The notes below the pieces were generated by a model that was given only the letters and a program-made list of their open reading frames with translations, made no database searches and was not told the origin of the DNA. DNA of 64,000 nt from Tulasnella sp. 424. Lineage: Eukaryota; Basidiomycota; Agaricomycetes; Cantharellales; Tulasnellaceae. This document shows positions 13,992 to 47,037 of the stretch, piece after piece. Made by a program: the position numbers and the translations under genes. The stretch covers positions 208,042 to 272,041 of the forward strand of contig WSUB01000042.1 in NCBI GenBank assembly GCA_019633425.1, in the 5' to 3' direction. Numbering within the stretch: the stretch's first letter is position 1; each line of letters begins with the position of its first letter.

Positions 13992-14060
13992 AGTTTGTTG
14001 AGGTGGGATGAAAAAAGAATTTTGACCTGAATTTGGCGACGTGTCTGGACACGCTGGCGG

Positions 14061-14067
14061 TGACGTG
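14061..14067 (+). promoter_or_regulatory. UPRE/CRE-like TGACGTG motif in the LHS1 promoter
   Basis: TGACGTG lies about 112 bp upstream of the post-gap LHS1 ATG (13949). TGACGTG is the core of the unfolded-protein-response element bound by Hac1/XBP1-type bZIP factors. A target such as LHS1 is expected to carry one, so the role is inferred from motif and target gene. A further TGACGT occurs at about 14124-14129. Confidence 0.5.
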
Positions 14068-14099
14068 CGGAGGTGATTACAAACAACGGGCTTTCCCAC

Positions 14100-16946: not shown

Positions 16947-17116
16947 GCGTTTGATTACACATATCACTTTTTAATGTTTGCATCCGATGGAAATTCGCCC
17001 TGTCGTCCCTATCATGCGTTTCTGATCCACGGCCCGCCTCAGTCCTTCAAGCAGCACGACGTCAATGAGATCAGTTGGGAGGATGTCATGTAGGACTGTA
17101 GAAATTGTCCAGAAGC

Positions 17117-18127
17117 CTAATATCTAGGAAGCTCCTCCCCCATAGCAAAGATCCTTCGATCCAGAGTAATGATTCGAGTGTGAAGCAACCGCACAATATC
17201 AGGAATTTGGACGGGTTTTGGAGGGGTGTCGTTAGGGGATGATGTTCCGGACGATATGTGCGCTGGGGTGGCGTGTTTAGTGTGTGATTGGCGGTGCCCC
17301 CTTAGATAAGCAAGATAACCGTCTGCCGAATCATCACCAGGCGAACTCACCGAAGAGTAATGGTAGGGGCGAGCGACAGTCCCCGATTCTACAGATGGTC
17401 CCCAGACATCAATATATTGGAGTTTATGCAAAAATGAAATGATCCCGGTATACAGTTCTCGAGTATCGGTAAACCAATTCCCAAAGAGAATACCGGAACG
17501 GAGCTAATAAACGAGACAATCTGCGATCGGTGGCATCGGAAGGTCTACCGATCGGGATGCTATACCTGCTCGCTACTCGTTCACAAGCGCGTTGTCTCTT
17601 TCCTTCCACTTGTGGAGGGGGTTATGGGAATCAGAGTGGCTAAGGAATCCTCGCGGACAGGATCTCAAAGCGAGCGGGAGTATCGTTTACAACTATATCA
17701 TCGGAAGTCTTGTGGCGTGGAGCCAGAGAGCCGGCGCCCTTTGAGGGTTGATAAGGAGGGAGAGGAAAGGAATGGTTAAGCGCTGGAGAGAGCATGGTGG
17801 AACCTTCGACCTATTCTTCGGCCTTCCTCGCCGAAGGCGAACCGGAACGCTCAAGTTTCAGTGATTGCTCCTGGCTGTGCGGCGGGTACAGAGAATCGGT
17901 AGTCTAGCGAGACTTACACTATTTTGATCTGATTCGGGCATGCCTAAACGAGACGCGAGGCGAGGAAGGTCATGCAGGAAGCCATCGAGGAATGGAAATG
18001 AGGGGGCATCTAAACTTGGCGCGAATTGCAAAGAAACAACACTCGGATCTTCTGGAACCGGTCAAGGGCGACCGCAGGGAAGGGTCGAGAAAGTAGCTGA
18101 TATATATGTACAGTAAACTCAGCGGGT
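17117..18127 (-). pseudogene. Companion sequence X, unit A (unrecognised, degenerate, opposite strand)
   Basis: The minus strand downstream of copy A contains segments that recur beside copies B and D, so it belongs to the duplicated unit. Two blocks are conserved: SLDAPSFPFLDGFLHDLPRLA (about 17940-18030) followed by a GTAAGT donor, and a distal block ending RRIFAMGEELPRY (from about 17431 down to 17117). In unit A the first block is shifted out of frame relative to unit B by an insertion near 18070-18090. No known domain is recognised, and intermediate exons could not be defined. Confidence 0.35.
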
Positions 18128-18333
18128 TAGCGAGGAAGGCCGCATTGGTAGTAAGAGTAAAGAGGACCAGGCTGAACACCAGGCTGATGGAGCGTGGCAT
18201 CGTTGGCGGGTGAGAGGGCGAGGTCTGCTGGAGTGGCAGAAGAGTTTGGTAAGGTGGGATGAAAAAAGAATTTTGACCTGAATTTGGCGCTGGCGGTGAC
18301 GTGCGGAGGTGATTACAAACCACGGGGCTTTTG
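18127..18333 (-). pseudogene. Duplicate of the LHS1 promoter, leader and signal peptide fused to sequence X
   Basis: About 207 bp are near-identical to the LHS1 5' end, covering part of the promoter, the 5' leader, the ATG (at 18200) and codons up to AAFLA. There the match stops abruptly, exactly where LHS1 continues IDYGSE. The reading frame runs on into the upstream part of sequence X (NPLSLLYIY...) and stops at 17970. Relative to LHS1, a 15-bp deletion lies in the leader. The product would be a secreted chimera of about 77 residues under a copied UPR-type promoter. Whether it is expressed is unknown; it may be a dead duplicate. Confidence 0.7.
18297..18303 (+). promoter_or_regulatory. Copied TGACGTG motif upstream of the chimeric LHS1 fragment
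   Basis: The UPRE-like TGACGTG seen in the LHS1 promoter is retained unchanged in the duplicate, about 97 bp upstream of its ATG at 18200. Confidence 0.45.
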
Positions 18334-19109
18334 TTGTCACGTTACTCCAAGTCATAGCATGTCATGCACGTAACACGTTACAAGTACCCAAACAATCACA
18401 TGAAGGAAGCTCTAACAGTCAGGGTTCTTCGATTGAGCGGACACATCCGCACATATCCATACTGCGCTTAGAGGCAGTACATGTTACATGTCACCCAGTA
18501 AGGAGATCGAGTCTTGCCGATTTGCTTTGGCAGCTTGTAGCGAACCCCCGGCCCCCCTTTGTTTCTCCTGGTGCGTGTGCCAGTCAACCATACTGAGGAA
18601 CGCGCATGAAACCAAGGCTGTATCAAAAGATCTTACAAATGCATCAGATGACAATCGCGAACCCTTTTACACTGACTGAGGCATCGTTACACGGCGAAAG
18701 GCAATGGCCGCCTATCTTTCTTACGGCGCCATTGCGTCCAGGTTGCAACCTCCGCCACGTTGCACGGCCTGCTCCGCTGAAGACACGCGTTTCTAGAATT
18801 CCACTCTTTGCTCTCGCCTTTGCGGGGTCGTTGAATGCATCGACCTCAACACTTACCGGAACTCCTCAGTCCCTCTCAGCAAATGGATGAACAAATGCCG
18901 GAGGGCCAGTAGCTTATCTAACGTCTCTCGCCTCTGGAAAGAAAATGGAAGAATATCTTGGGATATTTATACAGTCCGTTTATAATTAGCTATTGCAAGT
19001 CAAGTCTCCCTCCATCGCTCATATACCCTATTCTGCATTTCCTTTTCACTGCACACTCTGTGTCACATTTAACCTGAAATCTTTCGCTACAAGACTTTGG
19101 TGTTGAGAC
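18334..19109. other. Intergenic interval with copied promoter of copy B
   Basis: No gene seen. 18940-19109 aligns by eye with the regions just upstream of copies C (about 20800-20983) and D (about 24400-24551). Shared elements are a CTTACCCTCG/CTCCCTCCATCG-type CT-rich stretch, a TGTGTC(A/T)CATTTAACC motif and TTTCGCTxCAAGACT before the start. The promoter was therefore duplicated with the gene. Confidence 0.55.
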
Positions 19110-19944
19110 ATGACGCTAAACCGGATGCTACCAGAGGAGCCCTTTCTCGTGCCAAAAATCAACGAACCCATATTTAGTCAAGGCAATGGTGTGAACGAAT
19201 TGATTTGGTTCATCGCGTAAGTAACGCCAAAACTATACCCGCAGATATCCACTCACCTCACCCCGAATGTCTTGGCATGGCCTCCACGCAGAGGAGCCTT
19301 CAGACTCGCGGCACCGCTATCGCTTACTGTCCAAGAGATACGCGCTTCCATAGAAATGCATCAACCTTGGAGGATTAATAAATGTAAGGGTGACGATAAA
19401 CGAGCCAGCGCCGAGGTGAACCCCGATTATCACTAGCGCTACTTACGAACGAGTTGGGCTGACCCTGCGACAAAAGAATAGCATTCGATGGATCCTATCA
19501 AAGTCTCCTGCGTTTTCACCAGACCCTAGGACGTCGGGATATTGGAGGATGACAGGAGCACCCCTCGTCCGAACTCTCGACCTACTACCCACATCTTGGT
19601 CGGAGGCAACGAATGTAATGACAGAAACTGAAAGGCGAGCATATCTGTGAGTGAATTTGTTTTTGGTACTTGATATTGACGGAGCTGAGAGTCTCTTCAA
19701 GAGCGAGCATGGACGAGCTTTTCTCGCGTTTCTAGAGGGAACGGTTTGCTTGGGTAGTTCGAGTGACGATGAAGTTACCTCCCAGGCGGAGGCGTACGCG
19801 CTTGGTTATACATATCACTTTTTTAATGTTTGCATCCGATGGAAATTCACCTTGTCGTCCTCATCGTGCATTTCTGATTCACGGTCCGCCTCGGTCCTTT
19901 CAAGCAGCACGACGTCAATGAGATCAGTTGGGAAGATGTCATAG
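19110..19944 (+). CDS. Small forkhead-like domain protein, tandem copy B
   Basis: Intact by eye. Exon 1 is 19110-19216 (MTLNRMLPEEPFLVPKINE..., ending IWFIA). Exon 2 carries PLSLTVQEIRASIE and HQPWRINKCKGDDKR. Exon 3 carries NSIRWILSKSPAFSPD, SGYWRMTGAPLVRT and MTETERRAYL. Exon 4 begins LLFKSEHGRAFLAFLEG and reads through to 19944. All splice joins keep frame with phase-2/phase-0 borders identical to copy A. The C-terminal tail is longer than in copy A because the TAG that ends copy A is not present here. Forkhead-like order as in copy A, with Trp again in place of the base-contacting His. Confidence 0.6.
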
Positions 19945-19977
19945 AGGACTGGAGAAATTGTCCAGAAGCCTATATAT

Positions 19978-20235
19978 CTAGGAAGCTCCTCCACCAGACC
20001 AGAATATCGGTAGTATAGCGAGACTTACACTATTCTGATCTGAGTCCGGCATGCCCGAACGAGACGCGAGGCGAGGAAGGTCATGCAGGAAGCCATCGAG
20101 TAATGGAAATGAAGGGGCATCTAAACTTGGCGCGGATTGCAAAGAAACAGCACTCGGATAAAGGTCTTTATAACCCGTCAAGGGCGACCGCGGGGAAGGG
20201 ATGTACAGTAAACTCAGAGGGTTAAAAAGTAGAAC
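19978..20235 (-). pseudogene. Companion sequence X, unit B (unrecognised, truncated)
   Basis: The minus strand reads open through NPLSLLYIPSPRSPLTG, YKDLYPSAVSLQ and SLDAPSFPLLDGFLHDLPRL to a GTAAGT donor near 20033. It then joins directly to a short GGAGCTTCCTAGATA end that in unit A lies about 750 bp further on. The middle of sequence X is thus deleted here. Convergent with copy B. Function unknown. Confidence 0.35.
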
Positions 20236-20983
20236 GTGGCTTGAGGTGTCTAATTACCAGGCAAATAGAACAGCTCGCGGTCGCCGTCAAACAAGAGGTG
20301 GAAATCCTGTGACAAAACGGCGCGTATTCGCGTAACGAAACCCTCGGCTATCCTACCGATTCCGTAGAATCGGGGATGGGAGCTCCAAAGGTCAAAGTTC
20401 TTCGGTTGAACGATGCGTATAACCATGTATATACATAAATGGGCTTATAGTCGATTCGTATCGCTTAAGGAAGTCGAGTTTGCCGATTTGCTTCGGCAGC
20501 TTCCTGCGATCCCATTGCACGCGAGTAATTCTAACCGGCGAAAGAGGACCAGCGCCTAGCTCTCCTACCGGTGGCATTCTTGTCTTCCCTCCGGAGTCAC
20601 GCTCGCACGTTCACTAGCGGACATGGCATTCTGTGTAAAGAGAGCCCGGTGTTGGCGGGCCTTGCCCGCCGCCCGGTGGCTCGCGGTGAGTGCATCGATC
20701 CTCACGCTCATTGGATCTTCGCAGCGCCACAGCAAATAAGTTACGAGGACCGGCGAACTCGTAATCTGCTCCGGGATCTCACTCTTCTAGAGCGAAAATA
20801 GAAGAACACCGGTACCGCCATCTAGGGATATCTATGGAGCTCATTTAGTTATTGCAGGTCGAACTTACCCTCGTCTCCCGCAAACTCTGTTTTGTGTCTT
20901 CCTTTTAGCGGCACCCACTGTGTCTCATTTAACCCGGTAGTTTCGCTGCAAGACTCTCCTGTCGAGACGTGACCTTAACACAG

Positions 20984-21689
20984 ATGCGACCAGACGAGCC
21001 CTTCCTCGTGCCGAAGATCAACGATACCAGATTAAGTCAAGGCAATGGTGTGAGCGAATTGATTTGGTTCATTGCGTGAGCTATGCAAACTATGCAGAAA
21101 CTCGTTGATATCTACTTACCCTACCCAAACCTCTCGGTATGGCCTCCACACAGAGGAGCCTTTAGACTCGCAGCACCGCTATCGCTTACTGTCCAAGAGA
21201 TACGTGCTTCCATAGAAGAGTATCAGCCCTAGAGGATTAGTAAATGTAGGGGTAACGATAAGCGAGCCTGCGCAGAGGTGAATGCACCGGCGCTACTTGC
21301 GGACGCGTTGGGCTGACCCTGCGATAAAAGAATAGCATCCGATGGATCCTATCAAAGTCTCCTGCGTTTTCACCAGACCCCAGGGCGTCGGGGTATTGGA
21401 GGATGACAGGAGTACCCCTCGTCCGAACTCTTGACCAACTACCCCCGTCTTGGTCGGAGGTGCCGAGTGTAATGACAGAAGCAGAAAGACGAGCATATCA
21501 GTGAGTATCTTTTTCTCGGTACTGGAAGCTGACGGAGCTGAGAATTTCTTCAAGAACGAACATGGACGAGCTTTTCTCGCGTTTCTTGAGGGAGCGGTTT
21601 GCCAGGGTTGCTCGGGTAACGGTGAACTTGTTGATCCGGACATAGATGCCCCTTTCCGCGCGGAGACGTGCACGGTTTACTATACGTAA
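20984..21689 (+). pseudogene. Forkhead-like copy C, disrupted by a nonsense codon
   Basis: Same four-exon layout as copies A, B and D (start ATG 20984, exon 1 to 21075). In exon 2 the conserved Trp of the QPWR motif is changed to TAG at 21230-21232 (TGG to TAG), so a full-length product is not expected. The upstream start used by copies B and D is also lost (ACGTGACC in place of an ATG). Exon 3 (NSIRWILSKSPAFSPD, SGYWRMTG) and exon 4 (HGRAFLAFLEGAV, stop near 21689) remain recognisable, which points to recent inactivation. Confidence 0.7.
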
Positions 21690-24551
21690 TACTTTATAAA
21701 TCTTTGCAATCGATGGAAATATACCCTGTTGCCTTCGCCGTTCATTTCTGATAGTTCTGTCACTTTCCTTTGACGGTGTTGTGTCACTCTGGCGCGGCAT
21801 ACCGCATGCGTCGATCCGGTGTTCAGCTGGCAGGAGGCTTCGGTCTGCTACAGCCTGGCTGGGCGTGCGCGTGTGTCGAATCTCCTTTAACCTGTCAAAA
21901 GTCTTAGTGGCCCTTCAATTGGCGGAAGACGGATCTTGATACGACGACGTAGGGAAGAATTCCCTACCCACTCCCTCCACAATGTCACCGTCCGTAGACC
22001 AGTAGTCCGGGTCGATGAGCCTCACATTTTACTCGCGTTTGGCAGCGTACATACTGGAAGCTGTGGAATAAACCAATCTGTCTTTCAAGTCGACGAGAAA
22101 GAAGGACAAGCAGATAGTGGAGACGAAGAGATCCCTAGACGACGAAAAAAAAAACCAAGTCCACGATATTTTCTATGGAATGACGCCAGGAAGAGAGGAG
22201 CGGGTAAATTGGTCGAAGAGCTTGGCTGTGGAGACACCTTCCCAGTCGCGGCGTTTAACCTGAGCGAAATTTCTCTCGGGTCACCACCAATTCCGATGCT
22301 GAATTCCAGTTTCCATCGATTTAATTCCAGTTATGAAAGCACATTAACAGGTCTCAGAAGTAATAACCGCTTCTCAGATGTTATTAGCCATGTTTCCACT
22401 GGCGACTTTGAGATTGTGCCCGCTGAGACAAGACTAGCTCCTGCTCCGGGACTGGGGTGTTAGCGCAACTATTTTCCTGCACATTCGAATTACTGTCGAG
22501 CGAGTATAGGGACTATATCGATGTAACTGGACACTCTTTAGATGCATCTCGAAGTGTGTTTTAAACTTATAGTGATATCATGGTATCAGCTCCTGTCATG
22601 CTGCAGCCGAACGTCTGTCAACACCGGTTGTACTAGTCTATAGTGGAAAACCCACCTGCCTTTAGTGCTGCCGCGAGGTCGAGGTGACGTCACCTTAGCT
22701 TGAATCTCACCGAGGTGAGCTCCCGAAACGCTGGCGGGTTCTCCCCAACTTGAAAGCCTCACGTGACAACCTTCCACTGCATGGTGAGTCGGGAACTGGT
22801 CTACGACCTATATCTTTGCATCGAGTTACTCGAAGAGACAAGTGATTGGTCCTGTCATTTCTGCCGTTTTGGTTTTAGGTCCGTCTATGTCCGATGGCGC
22901 ACGACGCCATAGCCACTAGCACTTCTAATCATGATTTTTCTCATGACGCAAACTGTACGTACGCGCTCACATGCACACATTAACATTCGCCCCAAACTTG
23001 TTCAAGTACAGATTTGAGCCGCAATATCGTGTTTTTGTCCTGATAGCGGTCCAACCTGAAGCGCGATTTCATCTCACACATGAGGCAGATTTATTAAAGC
23101 ACGCAACAACTGGTTTTAGCATTGTGTTTTGAGTTTTGTGTCTTACAGAAACCTGTGCACCACATGCTTCAATAAGTGCAGGGGCACACGCCAGATGGGT
23201 TTCTGGAAGAAAACAGATATCATGGCCAGATAGGGTCGCGTCTCTGAACAGACCAAATGGTTCACCGTGTTCAAGGTGTCACCTCGCCATGCAACGAGTG
23301 TTGTCGCGGAGCTCGAAGCTTTCTTGAACATTCCTTACCTTCGACAAACTTCGATCCATCGAAGCGGCCCCGGAGGAAGCCTGCAGTAAGTAATCTGATG
23401 CACCACGCGCTCGCATCACCTCACCTCACCTTGTTCGGACAGACCCTGAGTAATTGAAGGGTCCAGGCTCTGATCAGTGGCGGCGGCAAGCTCGGGCGAC
23501 CAAACTTGGGAGGCCAGCTCGTACGTACGTGCCTAGCAGACCCTTTAAGCCATGCATGCCTACCCAACCTTAAATTTGAGTGCTCAACCTGACGTTGGCT
23601 GTGCACGTTAACATCCAAATTTTATTTAACTCGTCTTACCTTTAAAGTTGATTTTGGGTAGTATAGCTGATGTTTTTGCTTTGAGATCAACGTTTCTACA
23701 ACAACTTATCCTCCGCTTTACCTATGATATCGCTGCTCCTAACATCCCTTTGTCTAAAAGTCAATCTTGCCTCAGATTTTCTTCAGAACATCGCTTATTT
23801 CAACTCTGACTGCAGAATTTTTTTGCTGTCTTCGCTAGCATTTACACTTCATCCCGTGGAACATACGTTGTTGATTTGGTTCCTCACCCCACGATGCCTG
23901 GCTTTGGCAGCTTCGGCTACCCCTTATAATCCTCCAGGGTCAAGTAAAGGCTAGGGATTTTTTGTGCCCTACTTCTGATGCTGCCCGACTGGGACCTGCA
24001 CAAGTTCGAACAGCATCCACGCTTTTTGACCCTCTCTATTCAGCTCTGGAATCCCCCAGGGGATTGCGTCGCCCAATAGTTTAAACTAAAACTTCAGTTG
24101 ACAACACTCATAAAACAAGCACGGCTACATCGATATAGTTGAGGAATTCCGCGTGCTTCGTCTTTCATGCTCGCGGGCCTTGCGTCTTAGCCCAATCTCA
24201 AGCCATGGAGCTTCCATTCTTGACGTACAAGCGAGATCTTGTCGCGCAACTTGCTCGACCCTCACATTCGTAGGATCTTCTCCACGTCGTAGCAAAACGG
24301 GTTTCAAATTCCGCGGAAGCTGTAATTTGCTTCACTCTTTCGGAAAGAATCATGAATAACACAAGACCAAGGTTGTTTAAAAAATTATACGCTCCCTACG
24401 TGGTTAGGTAGCAGCCTTGGGATACTTATGGGGCCCACTTCGTTACTCGAGGTCAAACCTACATTCCATCGCTTCCATCCTCTATCTTTTGACCCTTTAT
24501 CTGCGACCTGTTAACCCGAAAGCTTTCGCTGCCAACCTTTTGTGTTGAGAA
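21690..24551. other. Gene-poor interval
   Basis: No recognised gene. A 175-codon open frame (21936-22463, +) has no known motif and contains a long A-run. A short frame at 23724-23954 begins with a hydrophobic signal-like stretch but is otherwise featureless. 24150-24551 resembles the sequence upstream of copies B and C and is part of the duplicated unit of copy D. Confidence 0.45.
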
Positions 24552-25396
24552 ATGACATCAATCCAGATGCGACGAGAGGAGCCGTTTCTAGTACCCAACA
24601 TCCGCGATCCCGTATTTAGCGAAGGCAACGGCGTGAGCGAAATGATTTGGTTCATCGCGTAAGTTACGCAAAGCTAGACAAGGGGTTATTGATCTTTACT
24701 TACCCCATTCCCGACGTTTTCGGCATGGCCTCTGCACAGAGGGGCATTCAAATCGGCCGCACCGCTGTCACTTACGGTCCAGGATGTACGCGCTTCTATA
24801 GAGGAGCACCAGCCTTGGAGGATCAATAAATGTCGGGGTGACGATAAACGGGCGTGCGCTGAGGTGAATGCTGGTCACCACGCCGGTGACGTTGTTTACA
24901 AACGGATTAGGCTGATGTCACCTGCGATGTTAAAGAATAGCATCCGATGGATCTTATCGAAGTCTCCCGCATTTTCGCCAGACCTCAGGGCGTCAGGGCA
25001 TTGGATGATGACAGGAGCGCCCCTCGTCCGAACTCTTAGTCAACTGTCCACGCCTCGCTCCGAGGCAGCGAGTGTAATGACAGAAGCCGAAAGGCAAGCC
25101 TATCTGTGAGTATAATCGTTTTTACCTAATTTGACCGAGCTGAAAGTCCCTTTAAGAGCGAGCATGGACGAACTTTTCGCGCCGTTTTAGAAGGAGCAGT
25201 TTGCCGGGGTAGCTGGCTTAACGAAATTAGTTGCTGGTTCGGAGTACAGAGAACCCTAGGGTGGAACTGTACGCATTTGATTATACATAGCACATGTCAC
25301 TGTTCGGATCCGATGGAAATTAGTTTTTGTTGTCCTCATCCCCCCTTTTTGATTCATTGCCCGCCTCCGTCCTTTCAAGCGGCACGACCTCAATGA
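24552..25396 (+). CDS. Small forkhead-like domain protein, tandem copy D
   Basis: Intact by eye. Exon 1 is 24552-24658 (MTSIQMRREEPFLVPNIRD..., ending MIWFIA). Exon 2 has PLSLTVQDVRASIE and HQPWRINKCRGDDKR. Exon 3 has NSIRWILSKSPAFSPD, GHWMMTGAPLVRT and MTEAERQAYL. Exon 4 (LPFKSEHGRTFRAVLEGAV) runs to a TGA at 25394-25396. The YWRM strand is HWMM here, the most diverged version in the array. The C-terminal tail has no counterpart in copy A or C. Confidence 0.58.
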
Positions 25397-25429
25397 GATA
25401 AGCTGGGTTGATATCGTGCCTGAGGGTGT

Positions 25430-25700
25430 ATGTCGAAAGTCTCCTGAAGCATATTCTGGAAGCTCCTCCACACAGCAAAGGTCCTTCGAGCTAGATATGC
25501 GTGAAGCAAGAACCGAATACAGAGATTTTGGAGAGACTTGGGTGAAGGGTGTTGTCAGGGAACCGAGTTCAGGTCGATATGTGCGCTGGCGAAGGCGCGT
25601 TTGAGCACATGGTTGGCACTGTCCCCGTAGATAAGCAAGATGCTTAGAGCCATCATCACCAGATAAACTCGCCAAAGAGTAGTCAGCCCATCAGTCCATA
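25430..25700 (-). pseudogene. Companion sequence X, unit D (3' part, between copy D and IRE1)
   Basis: The minus strand repeats the distal block of sequence X: DDG/DDSxxxxLAYLRG, then a stretch shared with 17117-17431 ending near EELPEYASG. It lies just downstream of the IRE1 stop. No function recognised and probably non-coding now. Confidence 0.3.
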
Positions 25701-28900: not shown

Positions 28901-29755
28901 ATGTCAGGTTCTGAATAACCTGGTCATGCGAATATACCGAGACGTGGTACTCTGCAGCAGCCAATAATGAGCACTCTGAGGGGCCTGACGTGGAGTCCGT
29001 GAGTACGACGTACCTGTTCTCCCGATGTGAACAAGGGCGCGGTCCGCCCCAGGCGGATCAAGCTCGTCCAATAGGTCTTCGTCTTTGGATTGGAAGAAGC
29101 GCTTCCGAGTCGGCTGATCGCCCCAACTGCACTGCTGCTCTGGGTCCAAAACTTCGACTAGTTCTCCCGAGGCGAGATCCAAGGTAATGAGAGACGTTCG
29201 CTTTTTGCCGACAAAAGTGCGATGGTCGATGCGAAGAGGACTCATGTCTACGAGTTGTTGCATTGTGAAAGGTAGCCTCTGTAATGGATCTTCCCGTTTG
29301 CTGTCGGCCGGGCTGACGAAGATTGCGCCGGACTGAGGTTCGATGATGTAGGTTTCGGTGATGGCTGGGTCGTCGTCGAAGTCGTCTAGGGAGAACTCGT
29401 TGGTGGTTCGAAGGCCGCCATGTTGTGTAAGGACGAGTTCCTTGAGGTTGGTGACAGCGACCTGAGGGTTTGCTATGGGCTGATCCATTGACCAAAGCAT
29501 CCTGCCGGTGGTCCTGTTAAGGGCGTGGAAGCGACCGTCGACGGAGGCGAGTAAGACGACATCCATCAACTTGAGTTCATCTGCCTCTAATGACGAATCC
29601 CTGAAGGATACTCTTGGTGGTTGTTGGCTTGCGGTAAATCGCTGGAGAGCAGTGATAGAGGTGGCGGCATTGTTTGCGCTGGGCTGGGATCTAGCTGACC
29701 ATATGTAAAAGAGGATGAGAGGGAGGAAGTAGGCAGCGACTAATGACGACGCCAT
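25964..29755 (-). CDS. IRE1: Unfolded-protein-response sensor kinase/endoribonuclease Ire1
   Basis: Full-length Ire1. A signal peptide (MASSLVAAYFLPLILFYIW) leads a lumenal beta-propeller-like sensor with VVLLASVDGRFHALNRTTG, IIEPQSGAIFVSP, EYHVSVYSHDQ and VGRVGNSLYALS. A single membrane segment lies near IFTGLFGLIFLAWVFAKRV (about 28010-28070), followed by an acidic/basic linker. The kinase has G-loop GYGSHGTVV, VAVKRLL, HRDIKPQNIL, DFG and GWRAPEILRG. The RNase (KEN) domain has KKLDKLFDDNLGKFRKYDGK, NKKHHYQDIPDNVKRAIG and a terminal FDSGGD. At least five short introns; the join restoring RPIVAVFDAVS was checked by hand. Ire1 splices HAC1/XBP1-type mRNA on ER stress. Its 5' half and the divergent promoter are duplicated at 31002-33040. 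Confidence 0.95.
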
Positions 29756-30996
29756 AAGACGTCCAATATCATGTCAATGTTGGAAGTGAATCCCTTGCGG
29801 CCTGCAGCTGGGGAGGAGGTGGTGAGTAAGGGAAGGCGGTATCTGGCGTGGACAAGATTGAAACGGACTTCTTCCACCTTCTCCCCGTTAGCTCGGCGTT
29901 TTTGATTTCACACAAAATTCAAAAACTATGCTGCGGTCCTCCTTCCATTCCCATTTCGCTGGCCCTTCAAGCATTGGCATATAGTGCATATTTTGTTAGG
30001 CTATTTATGATATTAGGATGGTGAATTGAGAGTCTTTGTGAACTGTTCGGCAAACCATCTAGTAGTCAATCCGAGTACATAATAATTCGCTAACGGTCTT
30101 CTGAATAACAACGGGCGCAGACCCAGAACCTCAAGTAAATTTAGATGCCGGGACATCCTTAAAACGTCGCAAGGCACACGATTCACCCTGTGGCTGTTGG
30201 CCACGACGCAGCGGTTGCTGAGCGGTGCGACGTAGAAAAACCGAACATTTGCTTACGTGTAAGCTCATTAGCGCCAAATTGATTCTCCGCCCACACTCAA
30301 ACAACACTTCGACATATCAGGCGTCGATGGCAACCCAAGAGGTTAATTATCGTCATACTTTCGGCAATGAAATTCACTTATTATTATACCTATGCTACAT
30401 AGCTAAGGTCGAGTAATATAATAGGTCTAAACGGAGCCAGAATGCCTGATGCAATATGATCTACAGCTTCTTTGCGGAAGGGGCTGCCTTTTCTACTTGA
30501 TCGGGACTGAGAGAGCTGGTCGTGTGTTCGTAGTTAACTTGTGCAACCCAGAAGCGCAGGCCGTGACAGCATGGGCTATATCGAAACGAGCTCAAAGGGC
30601 CTAGACCTCCAGAGCATTGTTGATCTCAGAGATAAAGTTAGACCAACCGGACACGCTGCTGAACGAGAACGACAGGCTGAATAGAGCTAGGAAGCCACAC
30701 TGCATATACTCTAATGCACTGATGCTTGAATGTAGGAAAGGAATAAAGCTGGAAGGTTTCGAAGACGGTAAGTGCCGATAACCGATGGAGCGAAGCTTCT
30801 AGGTCAACTACATTTTATAACAAAAGCGGAGCCCTGTATATGAAGATGTAAAGAGTCGAAACACACAGGTTCGAATGGGAGCACACAGGGGTGTTTGGGG
30901 ACCGAGGATAATGAAGCACCGACTAACTGAAGGCAATGCCTCGCAAACTTTCTCCCGACGGCCAGGAAAGTAATCATGTCGAGGATTTTCAATTAA
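28325..30996. repeat. Tandem duplication block 1 (IRE1 lumenal half - divergent promoter - JIP5 5' stump)
   Basis: Aligns by eye with 31002-33240. The shared parts are the IRE1 lumenal coding region and its introns, the intergenic tract (for example CCCTTCAAGCATTGGCATAT and GCAGACCCAGAACCTCAAGTA) and the beginning of JIP5. About 0.55 kb near 30340-30900 in this block has no counterpart in block 2. Confidence 0.8.
30918..30996 (+). pseudogene. JIP5 exon 1 remnant
   Basis: Matches the JIP5 exon 1 stretch around 33148-33230 (EGNASQxFS...SCRG.SIN) with point changes, including an in-frame stop where JIP5 has a Gln codon. The JIP5 start codon region is missing and replaced by unrelated sequence. 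It ends at the junction with the duplicated IRE1 fragment at about 31000. Confidence 0.7.
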
Positions 30997-31001
30997 TGGG
31001 A

Positions 31002-32283
31002 CTAGTCGATCCGGTGCGGTCCGGTAAGGCAGTCTAGAGTGGTGCAGACTTGCTGCTGTGTTTCTCCATGTTCAGGATCGGTGGGAGGGAGTCCGGGGAG
31101 TGGACTGAAAATGACGAGCGGGAAGGTATCGTTGCTGAGCGCGTAGAGAGAATTGCCGACACGTCCAACGTAGGCGACTTTGTCCTGCTTCGACAGTTTC
31201 CGAAGCTCCTTTAGGCGAGACGGATAAAGGTCGCTGAGCGCCGGCGTCGGTTGTGCGAGAATGTGAGGATCAATGCGGTCGGCGATTGAGACCGTATCGA
31301 ACACAGCCACGCTTAGAACCCAGATACAGAGAGTAAGCAGCTGCATTTCAGAAAGCGAGGTTCTGCGGACGGGACACACATCACTCACGTAGGATGTTTC
31401 AATTTGATAAACGAGCGGAATGGTTCTTTCTCATCGATTTTGAACATGAGGAGGCTTCCATCAGGAGTGGTTTGGTGGCACAAGTTGTCAGGCGTCCGAC
31501 GCCAGCGGTCCTGCAATTCCTTATCGACATTGTTGGGTCCGTATGATAAATATGTGAGGGTGTGAATAACCTGACCATGCGAGTATACCGAAACGTGGTA
31601 CTCTGCAGCAGCCAATAATGAGCACTTTGGAGGGCCTGACGTGGAGTCTGTAACAACGACGTACCTGTTCTCTCGATGTGAACTAGGGCGCCGTGATCAA
31701 GCTCGTCCAATAGGTCCTCGTCTTTGGATTGGAAGGAGCGCTTTCGAGTCGGCTGCTCTGGGTCCAAAACTTCGACTAGTTCTCCTGAGCCGAGAACCAA
31801 GGTAATGCGAGACGTTCGCTTTTTGCCGACAAAAATGCGATGGTCGATGCGAAAAGGACTCATGTCTACGAGTTGTTGCATTGTAAAGGGTAGCTTCTGT
31901 AATGGATCACCACATTTACTATCGACTGGGCTGACGAAGATTGCGCCGGATTGGGGTTCGATGATGTAGGTTTCGGTGATGGTTGGCTCGTCGTCGAAGT
32001 CGTCCAGGGAGAACTCGTCGGTGGTTCGAAGGCCGCCATGCTGCGAAAGGACAAGTTCCTTGAGATCGGTGACTGCGACCTGGGGGTTTGCTATGGGCTC
32101 ATCCATTGACCAAAGCATTCTGCCGGTGGTCCTGTTAAGGGCGTGGAAGCGACCGTCGACGGAGGCGAGCAAGACGACATCCATTAACTTGAGTTCATCT
32201 GCTTCTAGTGATGAATTCCTGAGGGACCATATGTAGAAGAGGATGAGAGGGAGGAAATAGGCAGCGACTAATGGTGACGCCAT
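31002..32283 (-). CDS. Lumen-only Ire1 paralog (sensor domain without membrane, kinase or RNase parts)
   Basis: Three exons (32283-31665, 31602-31389, 31311-31002) splice at the same sites as IRE1 and give 380 codons plus stop. It begins MASPLVAAYFLPLILFYIW, a signal peptide as in IRE1. It follows the sensor domain to CTTLDCLTGPHRID and stops at the duplication breakpoint, before the membrane segment. Compared with IRE1 it has several indels: about 30 residues lost after the signal peptide, about 7 in DPEQ-PTRK, 4 in DELD-xALVH, and a block near EHGE. It also has many substitutions, yet every indel is a multiple of three and there is no stop. There is no HDEL-type tail. A soluble ER or secreted decoy or partner of Ire1 is possible (inference); a recently formed, not yet decayed pseudogene is the alternative. 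Confidence 0.7.
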
Positions 32284-33240
32284 AAGACGTCCAATGTCAC
32301 GTCAACGTTGGAAGTGAATCTCTTGTAGCCTGCAGCTGAGGAGGAGCCAATGATCCATAACGGGAAAGAAGTCGTGCCTTGAGAGGGGACACGTTTACAA
32401 CATGGAAGAGTCACAGCGTCACGTGTTATGACCTCTGATAAGGCCTTGGCATTTCCAGAAACACAGGTCGGGCCCGAGCGATGTCTCGCCCGTGTTGTGT
32501 TCGTGTCAATGAAGCAGTGCTTTCACCCAAAACATGGGATTTACACGGTGAAGGTATCTAGAGTGTTAAAGGGATGTCACACCCCCATGCATCTCAAATG
32601 TCAGTGCTATGTCAAGCCTTCCGACACGTCCTAATTACGATGAGTGTTAGCTTTGTTGGCCCTTCAAGCATTGGCATATAGGGGGTATTTTATCAGACTA
32701 CTTATCAATTAGGATGGCAATTCGAAGAGTTCTTTGTGAGCTGCCCGGCGAACCCTCTTCAAGTTATCCTCAGTTCGAGTACATAATAATTCGACGGCCT
32801 TCTGAGTAACAGCGGGCGCAGACCCAGAACCTCAAGTAGGTTTAGATGCCGGGACATACTTAGAACGTCGCGAGGCACAAGACTCACCCTAGGCCTGCAC
32901 GACGTCGTGGTTGCGGTGAGCGGTATCGCGTAGAAACCGAACATTTGCTTACGTGTACGCTCTTTAGCGCTAAATTGCATCTCCGCCCACACTCAAATCG
33001 GTCAAGCAACACCTCGACATATCAGGCATTGACAGGATGCCTGATATCCCACTCAAACATCAATGCTTCGACTTGAAATTCTCTCCGACAGCAGACCAAG
33101 TCTACGTTGGCCTTTTGAACGGCGCCGTCAAAGGCTTTTCATACGACAGTGAAGGCAATGCCTCCCAGAGTTTCTCCCTCCGGCCAGCAAAGCAATCATG
33201 TCGCGGGGTTTCCATTAATGAGACTGGTGATAAGTTGTAC
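31002..33240. repeat. Tandem duplication block 2 (truncated IRE1 - divergent promoter - intact JIP5 start)
   Basis: Counterpart of 28325-30996 in direct orientation. One breakpoint lies inside the IRE1 lumenal coding region and the other inside JIP5 exon 1, so each block keeps one intact and one broken gene. 32284-33036 is the shared divergent promoter and holds no other gene. Confidence 0.8.
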
Positions 33241-34525
33241 GCAGTGTCGAAGGACAGGGGACTAAGGTTTGTCCTCGTTTCCTATCTCCGAATATTTCAA
33301 TGCTGACCGTGACTCCTTAGGACGATAGACCCAGCTCGCGGTACCATCATTGAAGAGAAACTGGGAGCCCACGAGTGCGTACGTCGGTATAGGGGCTCTC
33401 GTTCTTCCTCAGTATGAGCTGACTTTTCTTTGTTAGCTCTGCAATTAACCGAGTTCTAGCCTGCACGTCTAGTATCGTCGCGACAGGGGACGACGATGGC
33501 GTTATCAAGGTACATTCCCATATATGGGGTATTGAGGACCAGCACAGCTCACGAATGTTCGTCAGCTCTGGGACCCCCGAAAGCAGAAAGAAATCAAGTC
33601 GTTCACCCATCATTTCGACTACATTTCCGACCTCATATTCACCCAGGAAAAGAACCAGATTGTCGCCTCCAGGTTTGTTTCTATTGCCGCCAACTCATTA
33701 GATCGAGGTCACTGATACTTTCCTCTCCTCAGTGGTGACTGCACCCTCAGCGTCATAGACATCCGCTCCTCCCGCACCGAACCATTCGCTCAATCCGACG
33801 ACCAGGACGACGAGTTCCTATCGCTCTGCTCCATCAAAGAAAACACCAAACTCGTCGTCGGAACCCAACTCGGCATGCTTAGCATATTCAATCGGTCCTC
33901 CGCCTCGTCATACCTCGGCCCTGTCGACCGAATGCCGGGGCACCCGTCCTCCGTCGACGCTCTCGTAGCATTGACTGACGACGTACTCGCTACTGGCTCG
34001 TCAGATGGGTTGATTCGACTTGTTCAGATTCTGCCGAATAAACTACTCGGAGCTGTAGCGGACCATGGTGATTTCCCCGTCGAGAGGTTGGGATTGAGCA
34101 GGGATGGGAAGTGGTTGGCGAGCGCGAGCCACGATGAAGTGCTTAAGCTGACAGATGTGGCGGACGCCTTAGAGGAGAGCGAAGGAGAGGAAGAGGACGC
34201 GGAAATGGAGGACGTGTGGTCCGAAGTGGCAGAGGAAGAGGACGAGGTTCCCAAGGGTGCACTCGCTGCAGCACTATTAACAGGACGTGGGGTGAAGCGT
34301 CCAGCAGAGTCAACTGCTTCATCTGAAGCTGGAGACGTAGTAGTCGAGGAAGACAGTGACATGGAAATCGCCGTCGTGCCATCCAAGTCTCGGCCAAAGG
34401 CGAGAAGCCCCTCGCCACCTCAGCCACCCAAGTCAGAAAAGAAAGAGAAGCAGAAATACAAGAAACAGAGGGGGAATCCGTCTCGTGCTGTGGAGGAACG
34501 TGTAGCCTTCTTCGCTGATCTGTGA
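33037..34525 (+). CDS. JIP5: WD-repeat protein Jip5 / WDR55 family, ribosome biogenesis
   Basis: WD40 protein of the Jip5/WDR55 family, linked to nucleolar rRNA processing. It starts MPDIPLKHQCFDLKFSP. Exons give GLLNGAVKGFSYDSEG, RTIDPARGTIIEEKLGAH, VATGDDDGVIK-LWDPR, DYISDLIF, SGDCTLSVIDIRSSR, VVGTQLGMLSIFN, PSSVDALV and LATGSSDGLIRLVQILPNK, about six to seven blades. An acidic stretch and a Lys-rich C-terminus (KKEKQKYKKQRG) follow, ending VAFFADL as is typical of the family. Four short introns lie in the first 700 bp. It is divergently transcribed from the truncated IRE1 paralog and shares the duplicated promoter. Confidence 0.9.
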
Positions 34526-41229: not shown

Positions 41230-41584
41230 ATCTTGTAATCCAACTCGTCAGACTCGATTATATGCGCGAGATACACGGAGAGTGCTCACTAGAGAGTGCG
41301 AGGTCGAGGGAAAGGCCGGGTTCAAAGTTTCAATCTGAGCCGTCTCGCGTCACCGTCGACAAACAAGAAATGTTCGTTTTCCCGCAACGTTCCGGATCAC
41401 CAGGAAACTCGCAGGATGCTTCGTAGCATGCTTCCTCGAAGCTTTTCCATCCAGATTGCATTAATGATGACTGATCGGTTATCACAAAATATTCTGGCCC
41501 TTCAGCTTCAGCTAAAGAGTCTCAGGATCAGCAGTCTTTTTCAGTCCTCTCTATCAGTCTCATCGTCGTCCTCATCCATCCCTC

Positions 41585-42929
41585 ATGGCCTTCTCCAACG
41601 CTCACGAAATTGACCTCTCAAAGGTCAGGCGGCATTGAGCACCAGCCCTAGCTGCTGGTAACTGACTTCAGGAACTGGCCCCGCATTTTCACAGCTCCCA
41701 GACGTCTCCGATATCTCGCCCGAGACCATTACCGACCGTGTCAACGCCATTAACTCTCTATGTCCCAACCCAAGGTTAAAGTTCGTCATGGAACGCCTCG
41801 TCACGCATCTGCATCAGGTCGTGGCTGAAACAAATTTGACGACCGAGGAATTGGTGACGGCAATCCAGTTCTTGACGCGCGTCGGTCAGACATGCGCAGA
41901 TAATCGTCAAGAGTTTATAGTGCTCGCAGGTGTCTTGGGGGTCTTGGTAAGTTGCGTGGGATGGGCTGCGTAATTGCTCGCAGTAAGTATGCTCGGCAAC
42001 CCAGGCGCTGGTGGATTCTATCAATCACCCCGGGGTCGGAGGCTCAACCGAGAACACCGTCCTTGGACCATTCTTTACCGAAGATGCTGCTGACAGTAAG
42101 CTTCCAAGAGCTTCCAATTCTTGCATATGGTCCTGACCAAATCTCTGGCCAGTACCCCATGGCGGCTCGATTGCGAGCGATAAGCAAGCCGGTACCCCCA
42201 TGTTTGTCTGTGGGCGCGTACTCGACACCTCAGGCCAACCAGTTCCCAATGCCAAGATTGAGACTTGGGAGACCGATGCGGAAGGTTTTTATGATACTCA
42301 ACACGCTGATCGACAAGAACCGGATTGCCGTGGAAGGCTCAGAAGCCAGGAGGATGGCTCATACGCGTTTCGAGGAATCGTGCCTGTTGCGTACCCCATT
42401 CAAGGAGACGTAAGATTATTTTTCCTCTCTCGCTCAAGTGGCCCGAATCCTGAAGTAATACTTGGTAGGGTCCTGTTGGTGATCTCCTGAAATTGTTAGG
42501 CAGACACAACTTCAGACCTGCGCACCTCCATATCATGATTGAGGTATGTCACTCTACCTTGATAATTCCAGATATCCTGACGAGTATAGGCGCATTCAGG
42601 CGCCGGGCTTCGAGACACTGGTTACCGCATTATACCCACGAGATGACAAGTATCTGAAAAGTGACGCTGTTTTTGGTGTTAAGACAAGTCTCATCGTCGT
42701 ATGCGTAACGTTCAACGCCCATACTGTCTCGAAGCTTACTCACATTGTTTGCTAGGACCTCCAAAACGTGACATCAGATGAAGAGGCCCGGGCCAGAGGT
42801 TTCAAATCCGGACCTTTCAAGCTTTTGAAGCAAGATTTCGTTCTTGTGAAACACGAAGAAGCCAAGGCAGTCCGAGCGGAGATGGCTACGAAGACTGTTC
42901 CGGACGAAGCGAAGGTCCAAGAGGTTTGA
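41585..42929 (+). CDS. Intradiol ring-cleavage dioxygenase (hydroxyquinol/catechol 1,2-type), copy 1
   Basis: Non-haem Fe(III) enzyme that opens catechol or hydroxyquinol rings in aromatic catabolism. Seven exons by eye. The N-terminal helical part is DITPETxxDRVNAINSL-like, with MERLVTHLHQVVAET and FLTRVGQTCADNRQEF. The catalytic core has TVLGPFFTEDAAD, GRVLDTSGQPVPNAKIETWE, DAEGFYDTQ (first Tyr ligand), IVPVAYP (second Tyr ligand) and RPAHLHIMIE (two His ligands), so all four iron ligands are present. The C-terminus ends VPDEAKVQEV. No signal peptide, so cytosolic. TVLGPFF resembles hydroxyquinol 1,2-dioxygenases more than catechol 1,2-dioxygenases, but substrate is inferred. First of three tandem copies in the same orientation. 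Confidence 0.9.
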
Positions 42930-43434
42930 TCCCCTCTGAAGAACTTGGGTTCTATCATATGTCCGGAGTTGGTGGTGGGACTCATCAGGAGGGTTATTTT
43001 TGCAAAGAGAACCAGAAATGTGCATTAATTTGGAAAGTTTGACGAGCTCTTCGCTGCCATTTTCGTAGTCGCATTGTAAGGGGAGAGTGGTCATAGGAGG
43101 CTACGGTTTGTCTGAGCGTCTCCGTCGTCGACAAACAAGATGGGTTCGTTTTCCTGCACCTTTCCCCAGGAAACTCGCTCGCTTCCAATCACCAACGCGG
43201 CATTCGTTTACGATCAAGGCGAGCCTATGGGCTTAAGGGCGCATGCGGGCTCCTCTGGATGCTCGAAGCATGCTTCTTCGAAGCCTTTCATTCCAGATTG
43301 CAATGATGACTGAGTAGCAAGAGATCCGTGTCACGAGATAACCCGGACCTTCGAGTTCAACTTCACAGCTAAAGGGCCCAGCATCAGCAGTCCTTCCCAG
43401 TCCTATCTCCCACTCTCATCCTCGCCCATCTCTT

Positions 43435-44774
43435 ATGGCCCTCTCCAACGCTCACGAAGTTGATCTCTCAAAGGTAGGGCAGCATCGAGCACTAGCCCTA
43501 GTTGCGGGTAACTGACTTCAGGAACTGCCCCCGCATTTTCACAGCTCCCAGACGTCTCCGATATCTCACCAGAGACCATTACTGACCGCGTCAACGCCAT
43601 TAACTCTCTATGTCCCAACCCAAGGCAAAAGTTCATCATGGAACGCCTTATCACGCACCTCCATCAGGTCGTGGCTGAAACGAATTTAACGACCGAGGAA
43701 TGGATGACGACAATCCAGTTCTTGACGCGCGTCGGTCAGACATGCACAAATATTCGTCAGGAGTTTATATTGCTTTCGGATGTCTTGGGAGTCTCGGTAA
43801 GTCGCATGGATGCGCTACGTGACCGCTTGTCCTGAATATGCCCGGTGCGCTAGGCGCTGGTCGATTCTATCAATCACCCCAAGGTCGGAGGCTCGACCGA
43901 GAACACCGTCCTTGGACCATTCTTTACCGAAGATGCTGCTGATAGTAAGTTTTCAAGTTCTTCCAAGTCTTGCCTCTGGTCCTGACCAAATCTCTGGCCA
44001 GTACCCCATGGTGGCTCGATTGCGAGCGACAAGCAGCCCGGTACCCCCATGTTTGTCTGCGGGCGCGTACTCGACACTTCAGGCCAACCAATTCCCAATG
44101 CCAAGATTGAGACCTGGGAGACCGATGCGGAAGGTTTTTACGATACTCAATACTCTGATCGACAAGAACCGGATTGCCGTGGAAGACTCAAAAGTCAGGA
44201 GGATGGCTCATACGCATTTCGAGGAATCGTGCCTGTTGCATATCCCATTCCAGGAGACGTGAGATTCCTTTTTTTGTCCTTTCGCTCTCCAATTCTGAAA
44301 TGATACTCTTCAGGGTCCCGTTGGAGATCTTTTGAAATCGTTAGGCAGACACAACTTCAGACCTGCGCACCTCCATATCATGATTGAGGTGTGTCACCCT
44401 ACTTTGATAATTCCAGATATACTGACGTGTAGAGGCGTATTTAGGCGCCGGGCTTCGAAACACTGGTTACCGCTTTATACCCACAAGGTGACAAGTATCT
44501 GAAAAGTGACGCTGTTTTTGGTGTTAAGACAAGTCTCATCGTTGTATGCATAACGTTCAACGCCTATACCGCCTCGAAGCTTACCCGCGTTGTTTGCTAG
44601 GACCTCCAAGACGTGACATCAGATGAAGAGGCCCGGGCCAAAGGTTTCAAAGCGGGACCTTTCAAGCTTTTGAAGCAAGATTTCGTTCTCGTTAAACACG
44701 AAGAAGCTAAGGCAGTCCGGGCGGAGAGGGCTGCAAAGACTGTTCCGGACGAAGCGAAGGTCCAAGAGGTCTGA
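43435..44774 (+). CDS. Intradiol ring-cleavage dioxygenase, copy 2
   Basis: Same exon structure as copy 1, with start ATG at 43435 and stop TGA at 44772-44774. Differences are scattered substitutions: EEWMTTIQFL for EELVTAIQFL, CTNIRQEFILLSDVLGVS, GFYDTQYSDR and SQEDGSYAFRG. Both Tyr and both His ligands are kept. The 5' flank repeats sequence found before copies 1 and 3 (GTCGTCGACAAACAAGA and TTCGTTTTCCCGCA-type elements), so the promoter was duplicated with the gene. Confidence 0.88.
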
Positions 44775-45227
44775 TCCCTTCTGGAGAACTTGGGTTCCAT
44801 CACGTGTGGGGAGTTGGTAGAAGGACTCTTTTGTAAACAGAATCAGAAATCTACATTAATTTTGGAAAGCTCTTCGCTGACACGTTCGTCGTCGTATAAG
44901 GTGAGGAAAAGCCGGTTTCGTCGTCGACAAACAAGAAATGTTTCGTTTTCCCGCACCGTTGAAACTCCGCTTCCCACCACCGCGGCGACAATGAGCCAAG
45001 CCGTGCCAAGCCTATGGGCGAGAAAACACCGCGCGAGCTTTCCTGGATGCTTCGTAACATGCTTTCTAAGCCTTTCCTTTGGCCGCGGATGCAGATTAAT
45101 GCAATGATGACGAGTACCCAGAGATCTGCATCACAGATATTCCAGACCTTCAGCTTCACAGCTAAAAGGTCTTAAGATTAGCAGTTTTTCCCGGCCCTAT
45201 CTACCACTTGCATTCTCATCCATCCCC

Positions 45228-46748: not shown

Positions 46749-47037
46749 TCGCTTCCGGATCACTTGGGTTCCATCATATGTAGTGAAATGGTAGTAGTAC
46801 TCATCAGGAGGGTGTATTTTTGTAAACAGGACCATAAATGTACATCAATCTTGAAGTTTGACAAGTTCTTCATTGACACTTTCGTAGTCGACCTGTCAAA
46901 GTGGAAGGGGGGATAAGCGCCGCGTCAACACAAGCAAACATCGAAATAATTTCAATTCTGCCCCCAGACGCCATCTCCCTAGCTCAGCGGTGTTCCGTTG
47001 CTCCGACGATTTAGGCCATAAGAGGCTTGCCGTAGCG

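What the first reader, a model, noticed from the sequence alone, without database searches (positions are those of the whole stretch)
31002..32283. A lumen-only Ire1 paralog that has stayed open despite several indels
The duplicate of IRE1 keeps signal peptide, sensor domain and both intron positions but ends before the membrane segment. It has diverged visibly, and all the length changes I can see relative to IRE1 are multiples of three, with no stop over 380 codons. That pattern suggests coding constraint rather than drift. A soluble Ire1 sensor domain could bind unfolded proteins or Ire1 itself and tune the unfolded protein response. The parts are direct reading; the role is inference.
Basis: partly seen in the sequence, partly recalled or inferred. 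Interest (0 to 1): 0.85.

Follow-up and report, generated by a model that had tools for sequence, protein, structure and literature searches.

The report
Lumen-only Ire1 copies in mushroom fungi
A broken-off copy of the gene for the protein-folding stress sensor IRE1 lies beside the intact gene in an orchid fungus, and similar copies seem to have arisen again and again in mushroom-forming fungi, often with the surface that pairs IRE1 molecules damaged, hinting that such copies persist only once they can no longer interfere with IRE1.

Summary
In detail: 31002-32283 (minus strand) is an open 380-codon IRE1 lumenal-domain copy beside intact IRE1 in Tulasnella sp. 424. It arose by a ~2.7-kb tandem duplication, and its truncation is the duplication junction. 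Pairwise dN/dS (0.29-0.40) overstates constraint: 44 of 47 replacements and all four in-frame deletions are on the copy, whose replacement number fits neutrality (P 0.17-0.37). The open frame is moderate evidence only. Beyond the window, annotated lumen-only IRE1 proteins occur in other Tulasnella and in Mycena. Where resolved, copies group with their own species' IRE1; single origins are rejected and breakpoints differ, so they arose repeatedly (conversion not excluded). Across 17 lumen-only lineages, changes converge on the Ire1 dimer/groove face: L189 (human W125), L203 (yeast F247), both proven dimer residues, and G245. Of nine lineages with both gene types seen, eight carry such a change; the window copy has L189R and G245E. 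Best reading: recurrent tandem copies that keep the lumenal fold but lose the pairing surface, which argues against the proposed binding to IRE1 itself. Whether this copy functions is open: no expression data, and protein models only outside this genome.

The parts
31002..32283 (-). Lumen-only IRE1 copy (380 aa): exons 32283-31665, 31602-31389, 31311-31002
31603..31664 (-). Intron 1 of the copy (62 nt), same place as IRE1 intron 1 (29013-28952)
31312..31388 (-). Intron 2 of the copy (77 nt), same place as IRE1 intron 2 (28737-28659, 79 nt)
31807..31809 (-). Codon CGC (Arg): IRE1 L189 (CTC, 29189-29191) changed; equivalent of human IRE1alpha W125, a dimer-interface residue
   Evidence: W125A in PMC6996924 passages
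31672..31674 (-). Codon GAG (Glu): IRE1 G245 (GGG, 29021-29023) changed; equivalent of human G157, two residues before groove-facing T159
   Evidence: T159 in a PMC5699868 passage
31002..31006 (.). Junction of the tandem duplication: the ungapped IRE1-derived match ends and the WDR55-derived match begins at 31006; the copy's stop codon (31004-31002) lies on the WDR55-derived side, read antisense
   Evidence: 28317-29608 matches 31006-32226; 30928-31006 matches 33150-33228
30297..31006 (+). Decayed twin half: 5' part of a WDR55/JIP5-like gene, start codon not preserved, about 480 extra bases, in-frame TAA
25964..29755 (-). Intact full-length IRE1 (1148 aa, six exons: lumenal, TM, kinase, RNase)
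   Evidence: gene model, identical to P0002, Pfam kinase and Ribonuc_2-5A
32284..33032 (.). Duplicated intergenic region between the copy and the WDR55-like gene; homologous in pieces to 29756-30327, with a non-matching block at about 32350-32650
33037..34525 (+). WDR55/JIP5-like WD40 gene, whose 5' end was duplicated (start codon 33037-33039; extent approximate, exons not modelled)
   Evidence: PF24796 E 1.3e-27 on 33875-34522; start region

Best explanation
Shown: the copy was made by a ~2.7-kb head-to-tail tandem duplication running from IRE1 exon 3 to the 5' end of the divergently transcribed WDR55-like gene; the truncation before the membrane segment is the duplication junction. Supported at protein level: similar lumen-only IRE1 proteins have arisen repeatedly in Agaricomycetes, in several resolved cases as the closest relative of the same species' IRE1. 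Supported statistically: these copies change recurrently at positions that full IRE1 almost never changes, and the three strongest map to the dimer/groove face (IRE1 L189, L203, G245). Inferred: a soluble Ire1 lumenal domain that could still pair would trap IRE1 in dead heterodimers, so copies that last are those that lose pairing. The window copy would then be a signal-sequence-bearing, soluble, largely monomeric Ire1 lumenal fold that does not pair with IRE1. If it does anything, it most likely engages BiP or unfolded clients as a monomer (inference).
For: Repeat structure and junction. Lumen-only relatives; same longest-contig length as full IRE1 in 424, UAMH 9824, M. venus, M. galopus, M. 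sanguinolenta and M. albidolilacea. Copies beside their own species' IRE1 in trees for 424, 427, UAMH 9824, M. venus, M. galopus and M. sanguinolenta, more weakly JGI-2019a; AU tests reject one clade. The UAMH 9824 copy ends in the C-terminus of glutamate dehydrogenase (E 1.3e-21), a different breakpoint. G245: Gly in 102 of 103 full rows, changed in 9 of 17 lumen-only lineages (p 2.7e-7, 64 columns); nine other conserved Gly columns changed in 2 of 148 lineage cells. L189: hydrophobic in 103 of 103 full rows, polar in 8 of 17 lineages, top of 66 such columns (p 5.5e-8); L203 second with 6 of 17 (p 2.0e-5). In the nine lineages with both gene types seen: G245 changed in 6, L189 polar in 5. Literature passages on W125A, F247A/T226A and T159. 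Fold kept in the model.
Against: For the window copy itself, neither the neutral simulation (P 0.17-0.37) nor the conservation test (P 0.057; 0.059-0.066 calibrated) rejects neutrality. Four of 17 lineages (M. venus, M. maculata, M. rosella, Rickenella) carry none of the three changes; M. venus has both gene types. The window copy keeps Leu at L203. Outside Tulasnella sp. 424 only protein models were available, so some 'lumen-only' entries may be split gene models. The 417 and T. calospora copies are unresolved in the tree. In 417, JGI-2019a and M. olivaceomarginata the copies report other contig lengths than full IRE1, so linkage is not shown there. The sites came from a scan, lineages are treated as independent, and relaxed constraint at the interface could explain part of the pattern: against the copies' average over all sites, L189 gives p 3.4e-4 and G245 p 0.0098 over 338 columns, neither surviving correction, with variable columns E57 and D53 ranking second and third. 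No expression evidence.
Confidence: 0.55

Rival explanations
1. The window copy is a young, nearly neutral partial duplicate that has not yet caught a disabling mutation; the genome makes local duplications often, and nothing is selected.
For: Replacement number compatible with neutrality (P 0.17-0.37) and zero stops not very unlikely (P 0.06-0.12); 8 of 18 sampled stretches of about 10 kb of this genome hold a direct duplication of at least 300 bp; some replacements hit positions identical in all six Tulasnella IRE1s compared; T. calospora P0122 looks, by eye, like a decayed relative.
Against: Four of four in-frame deletions, both introns' splice sites intact, and the twin WDR55 half has decayed. 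It does not explain the convergence on dimer residues, nor that 20 of 21 lumen-only comparisons show changes concentrated at variable sites (P <= 0.0055; the exception is the window copy).
Confidence: 0.3
2. One older lumen-only duplicate, homogenised with IRE1 by gene conversion in each species, so that it only looks as if it arose many times.
Against: Breakpoints differ: WDR55-like gene in 424, glutamate dehydrogenase in UAMH 9824 and probably 408, different C-terminal ends in 417 and JGI-2019a. AU tests reject one clade for Tulasnella (7.7e-5) and Mycena (5e-87), though conversion could also cause that.
Confidence: 0.12
3. The copy is an active brake on the unfolded protein response: it pairs with IRE1 through the lumenal dimer interface and holds it in dead heterodimers.
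For: The lumenal fold is kept in the model and the gene lies beside IRE1 with a duplicated promoter-proximal region.
Against: The copy has Arg at the W125 position and Glu at G245, in the dimer/groove region; 8 of 9 lineages with both gene types carry a change at one of three such sites.
Confidence: 0.07
4. Assembly artefact: two divergent haplotypes or a mis-join placed in tandem.
For: Two N gaps in the window are flanked by identical 77-bp ends, the mark of a short-read scaffold.
Against: The junction lies in continuous sequence far from both gaps; similar copies occur in relatives, and in 427 the gene model runs from a lumenal copy into IRE1.
Confidence: 0.03

Closest known systems
IRE1 (Ire1p, ERN1), bifunctional kinase/RNase stress sensor
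   Different: no transmembrane segment, no kinase, no RNase; dimer/groove-face positions L189 and G245 changed
Arabidopsis IRE1C (PMC6788458, outline and abstract; PMC6883098, search listing only)
   Same: an IRE1 paralogue that has lost one half of the protein
   Different: mirror image: IRE1C lacks the sensor domain, whereas the copy here is sensor domain only
Recombinant soluble Ire1 lumenal domains used in laboratories (PMC3517461, PMC6996924, PMC11480506; passages)
   Same: soluble lumenal domain without membrane anchor; yeast Ire1 and IRE1beta lumenal fragments show anti-aggregation activity in vitro; W125A and P108A are dimerisation-compromised mutants
   Different: those are constructs; the copies here are natural genes
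Partial tandem duplicates and unprocessed pseudogenes
   Same: head-to-tail direct repeats, introns kept, truncated at the junction
   Different: frame and splice sites intact; class-wide convergence on particular sites

Membership tests
IRE1 stress sensor | Ire1 lumenal domain fold | tested here: met
   AlphaFold2 model pLDDT 84.8; yeast Ire1 lumenal domain first in both structure comparisons
IRE1 stress sensor | N-terminal signal sequence | tested here: inconclusive
   hydrophobic residues 1-19 by Kyte-Doolittle; cleavage not predicted; the 30 residues after position 19 of IRE1 are deleted
IRE1 stress sensor | single transmembrane segment | tested here: not met
   no second hydrophobic segment; IRE1's is at 513-531
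IRE1 stress sensor | kinase and RNase domains | tested here: not met
   no Pfam match in P0115 at E 0.01; both present in P0002
IRE1 stress sensor | lumenal dimer interface (hydrophobic residue at the human W125 position) | tested here: not met
   Arg in the copy; hydrophobic in 103 of 103 full rows; pairing itself not measured
Arabidopsis IRE1C type | kinase/RNase kept, sensor lost | tested here: not met
   the opposite half is kept
Unprocessed (tandem) duplicate | direct repeats that include flanking non-coding DNA, introns kept | tested here: met
Pseudogene | frameshifts, stops or broken splice sites | tested here: not met
   none in 380 codons; GT..AG intact
Pseudogene | no transcript or protein | not testable with these tools
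   no RNA or peptide data

The most novel reading that the evidence does not exclude
Mushroom-forming fungi repeatedly evolve natural, soluble, non-pairing Ire1 lumenal proteins by tandem partial duplication; selection first breaks the dimer interface and then keeps the fold, so that the protein works as a monomeric decoy for BiP or unfolded proteins and tunes the unfolded protein response.
Probability: 0.3. Interest if true: 0.85.

Novelty: new variant of a known kind. Interest (0 to 1): 0.68.

Why it matters
If right, nature has run many replicates of an experiment on Ire1: what must change in a free lumenal domain so that a cell can tolerate or use it. Two recurrent sites coincide with laboratory dimer mutants (human W125, yeast F247), and a third, G245 (human G157), had no mutant described in the passages I saw. 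It would give UPR researchers natural monomeric lumenal domains and a testable claim that free Ire1 lumenal domains are harmful unless disarmed. It also warns that a low pairwise dN/dS between a duplicate and its constrained parent says little about the duplicate. I found no report of lumen-only IRE1 paralogues in fungi in searches (titles and abstract starts of the listed papers only; open-access library).

Tried and rejected
Pairwise dN/dS as a test of constraint: rejected after polarising with outgroup IRE1 proteins. Single ancestral lumen-only gene: rejected by AU tests and breakpoints, gene conversion kept as a rival. A Pfam family for the lumenal domain: none above its cut-off in the copy. 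Codon mutability of Gly as cause of the G245 changes: nine other conserved Gly columns do not show it. A splicing cause (the G245 codon lies 8-10 bases before the intron-1 donor) was considered and not tested; R246 and T247, between it and the donor, were scored unchanged in 17 of 17 lineages, although T247 reads Q and V in two aberrant M. olivaceomarginata models (P0194, P0199). C-terminal-half IRE1 duplicates in this genome: of 18 matches, three are IRE1 itself and the others weak kinase matches (E 6e-8 or worse, which scores only the best candidates). Lumenal copies elsewhere in this genome: three matches, all at these two loci.

Limits of the counts. The searches scored only the 7996 candidates sharing most words. 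Rows dropped before the lineage scan: P0122, P0248, P0113 and P0124 (broken, diverged or fused models), P0133 and P0182 (they have a membrane segment), and unnamed metagenome fragments; other named short hits such as P0169 were not examined. The 103 'full' rows are the proteins P0001-P0110 longer than 950 aa less P0001, P0086 and P0099, plus three partial or cut Tulasnella rows. Msang_full2 is a full-length duplicate and is not counted among the 21 lumen-only comparisons; several comparisons there use another species' IRE1 as partner. M. olivaceomarginata P0194 and P0199 have aberrant models around G245. The UAMH 9824 model lacks the L189 region, so that lineage rests on 408 there. L203 lies near a loop with many gaps, so its alignment is the least sure. 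The single non-Gly full row (P0108) is probably an alignment or model error. The groups for AU tests were chosen after seeing the trees.

Papers: passages only for PMC3517461, PMC11480506, PMC4606518, PMC5699868, PMC6996924, PMC13395458, PMC9010685 (not about the lumenal dimer), PMC8256922 and PMC3634511; outline and abstract for PMC6788458; PMC2897766 and PMC11300964 were searched for residue names without a hit. Recalled, from no call: the gene name JIP5 and the likeness of one frame to LHS1/GRP170.

Full report
What is there. The window is contig C357:208042-272041 of a 46.8-Mb assembly; its IRE1 protein is identical to that of Tulasnella sp. 424. IRE1 runs on the minus strand from 29755 to 25964 in six exons, 1148 aa. 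Upstream of it, 32283-31002 encodes a 380-aa protein that is 87% identical over the lumenal domain, keeps the first two introns with intact GT..AG ends, and stops before the membrane segment. It is in the protein database as P0115, named after full IRE1 although it has no kinase or RNase match. A genome search found lumenal matches only at these two loci.

How it was made. Direct repeats show one head-to-tail tandem duplication: 28317-30327 matches 31006-33032 in pieces, and 30928-31006 matches 33150-33228. The unit runs from IRE1 exon 3, through the shared intergenic region, into the divergently transcribed WDR55/JIP5-like gene (PF24796). At the junction, position 31006, the IRE1 frame runs into antisense WDR55-like sequence and meets TAG at 31004-31002. 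The truncation is thus the breakpoint. The other half product, a 3'-truncated WDR55-like gene at 30297-31006, has not kept its start codon, holds about 480 extra bases and has an in-frame TAA. Local duplications are common here: 8 of 18 sampled stretches of about 10 kb (six of them from this contig) hold a direct duplication of at least 300 bp, and the window has two more tandem clusters.

Is this copy constrained? Pairwise dN/dS is 0.29 (NG86; bootstrap 0.20-0.43), 0.35 (ML) and 0.40 (YN00). Outgroup IRE1 proteins place 44 of 47 replacements on the copy, 2 on IRE1 and leave 1 ambiguous; all four in-frame length changes (90, 21, 12, 36 nt) are deletions in the copy. Assuming half of the 48 synonymous changes fell on the copy, neutral simulation expects 51-60 replacements against about 45 seen (P 0.17-0.37), and P(no stop) is 0.06-0.12; with 30 synonymous changes the first P falls to 0.01-0.09, with 18 it rises to 0.56-0.78. 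Replacements lean towards variable positions, but only at P 0.057 or 0.059-0.066 with real codons. Frame retention is the main evidence for constraint; it is moderate, and it was the reason the locus was noticed.

It is not alone. A search with the copy found annotated lumen-only proteins in Tulasnella sp. 408, 417 (two), UAMH 9824, JGI-2019a and T. calospora MUT 4182; in sp. 427 a gene model runs from a lumenal copy straight into full IRE1. That search and a profile search together gave many Mycena proteins and single ones in Armillaria, Rickenella and Ceratobasidium. Of 32 such proteins checked, P0133 and P0182 have a membrane segment and were set aside, P0190 and P0113 are fused or odd models with other segments, and the rest have at most one hydrophobic segment near the N-terminus. 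In M. venus the two genes have neighbouring locus tags, and in 424, UAMH 9824, M. venus, M. galopus, M. sanguinolenta and M. albidolilacea the two proteins report the same longest-contig length, which I take as linkage. In 417, JGI-2019a and M. olivaceomarginata the contig lengths differ, so linkage is not shown.

They arose repeatedly. In trees the resolved copies sit with their own species' IRE1: 424 (96/96), 427 (95/96), UAMH 9824 with 408 (99/95), JGI-2019a (82/79, weak); the 417 and T. calospora copies are unresolved within the 417/UAMH group. In Mycena: M. venus (95/89), M. galopus (99/97), M. sanguinolenta (beside its full-length rows, 99/97), and a six-member M. olivaceomarginata/albidolilacea group beside those species' IRE1 (95/87); other Mycena copies had no own IRE1 in the tree. 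One origin is rejected for the seven Tulasnella copies (p 7.7e-5; smaller sets 7e-4 and 0.03) and for ten Mycena copies (p 5e-87; smaller sets 1.5e-4 and 0.011); the groups were chosen after seeing the trees. Breakpoints differ: the UAMH 9824 copy ends in a 63-residue match to the glutamate dehydrogenase C-terminus (E 1.3e-21), and the 408 copy shares its start (E 0.005); glutamate dehydrogenase is the second gene beyond the WDR55-like gene in the window. Gene conversion of an older copy is not excluded.

Convergence on the pairing surface. In a scan of 64 columns conserved in at least 95% of 103 full IRE1 rows, G245 (motif I-G-R-T) is changed in 9 of 17 lumen-only lineages, including all five of Tulasnella (E, D, D, R, R), p 2.7e-7; the next columns have p 0.005. 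Nine other conserved Gly columns changed in 2 of 148 lineage cells. Among 66 columns that are hydrophobic in at least 97% of full rows, the one most often made polar or charged is L189 (8 of 17 lineages: R, R, S, R, E, T, S, E; p 5.5e-8), the second L203 (6 of 17; p 2.0e-5). By alignment to solved structures L189 is human W125, L203 is yeast F247 and G245 is human G157; human numbering was checked by the Q105C mutation of entry 6shc. W125A is a dimerisation-compromised mutant (PMC6996924 passages). T226A/F247A disrupts yeast interface 1 (PMC8256922 passages; PMC3634511). T159, two residues after G157, faces the groove (PMC5699868 passage), and Y161 marks a peptide pocket (PMC13395458 passage). 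In the nine lineages where full IRE1 and a lumen-only copy were both seen, G245 is changed in 6 and L189 is polar in 5; 8 of 9 have at least one of the three changes, M. venus none. Over all 17, four lineages have none (M. venus, M. maculata, M. rosella, Rickenella) and Ceratobasidium only L203S; some of these may be fragments of a normal IRE1. The window copy has L189R and G245E and keeps L203.

Reading. Copies keep the fold and lose the pairing surface. Relaxed constraint on the interface alone would raise change there to the copies' average. L189 and G245 exceed that average in same-species pairs (p 3.4e-4 and 0.0098 over 338 columns), but not after correction, and two variable columns rank between them, so positive selection is suggested, not shown. 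A simple mechanism is that a free lumenal domain that still pairs would trap IRE1, so lasting copies are disarmed. A monomeric lumenal domain could still bind BiP, which associates faster with monomeric than with locked dimeric human lumenal domain (PMC6996924 passage), or act as a weak holdase, as yeast and IRE1beta lumenal fragments do in vitro (PMC3517461 passages). These last steps are inference.

Verdict. Limits: one genome's DNA, protein models elsewhere, capped protein searches, no expression data, post hoc site selection.

Noticed in passing
window 13815-13914 and 46470-46569: Two 100-N gaps, each flanked by identical 77-bp ends: joins of a short-read assembly; both lie in or beside locally duplicated sequence.
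   Followed up: partly
window 41414-46890: Three tandem copies of an intradiol-type dioxygenase gene (Dioxygenase_C E 1.3e-18 on 42137-42487), 81-86% identical DNA.
   Followed up: partly
window 16245-25681: Several mutually similar segments in tandem (70-89% DNA identity), contents not identified.
   Followed up: no
window 13509-14099: An open frame that looks like the start of an ER Hsp70-like (LHS1/GRP170-type) gene, by eye only, cut by the first assembly gap, on the same contig as IRE1.
   Followed up: no
P0122 (Tulasnella calospora MUT 4182): A second IRE1-like protein with the same longest-contig length as the lumen-only P0119, with scrambled stretches where the membrane segment should be; looks like a decayed copy.
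   Followed up: partly
P0135, P0190, P0192, P0194, P0199 (Mycena olivaceomarginata): Five lumen-only proteins in one species: the group has expanded there.
   Followed up: partly
window about 32350-32650: The copy's upstream region holds a ~300-bp block with no clear match to IRE1's own upstream region, inside otherwise duplicated sequence, so the two promoters differ.
   Followed up: no
lumen-only proteins P0115, P0117, P0118, P0119 and the N-terminal part of P0001: These Tulasnella copies lack all or part of the acidic loop QCSWGDQP..DEDLLDELDPPGAD that the IRE1s keep; P0116 keeps it.
   Followed up: no
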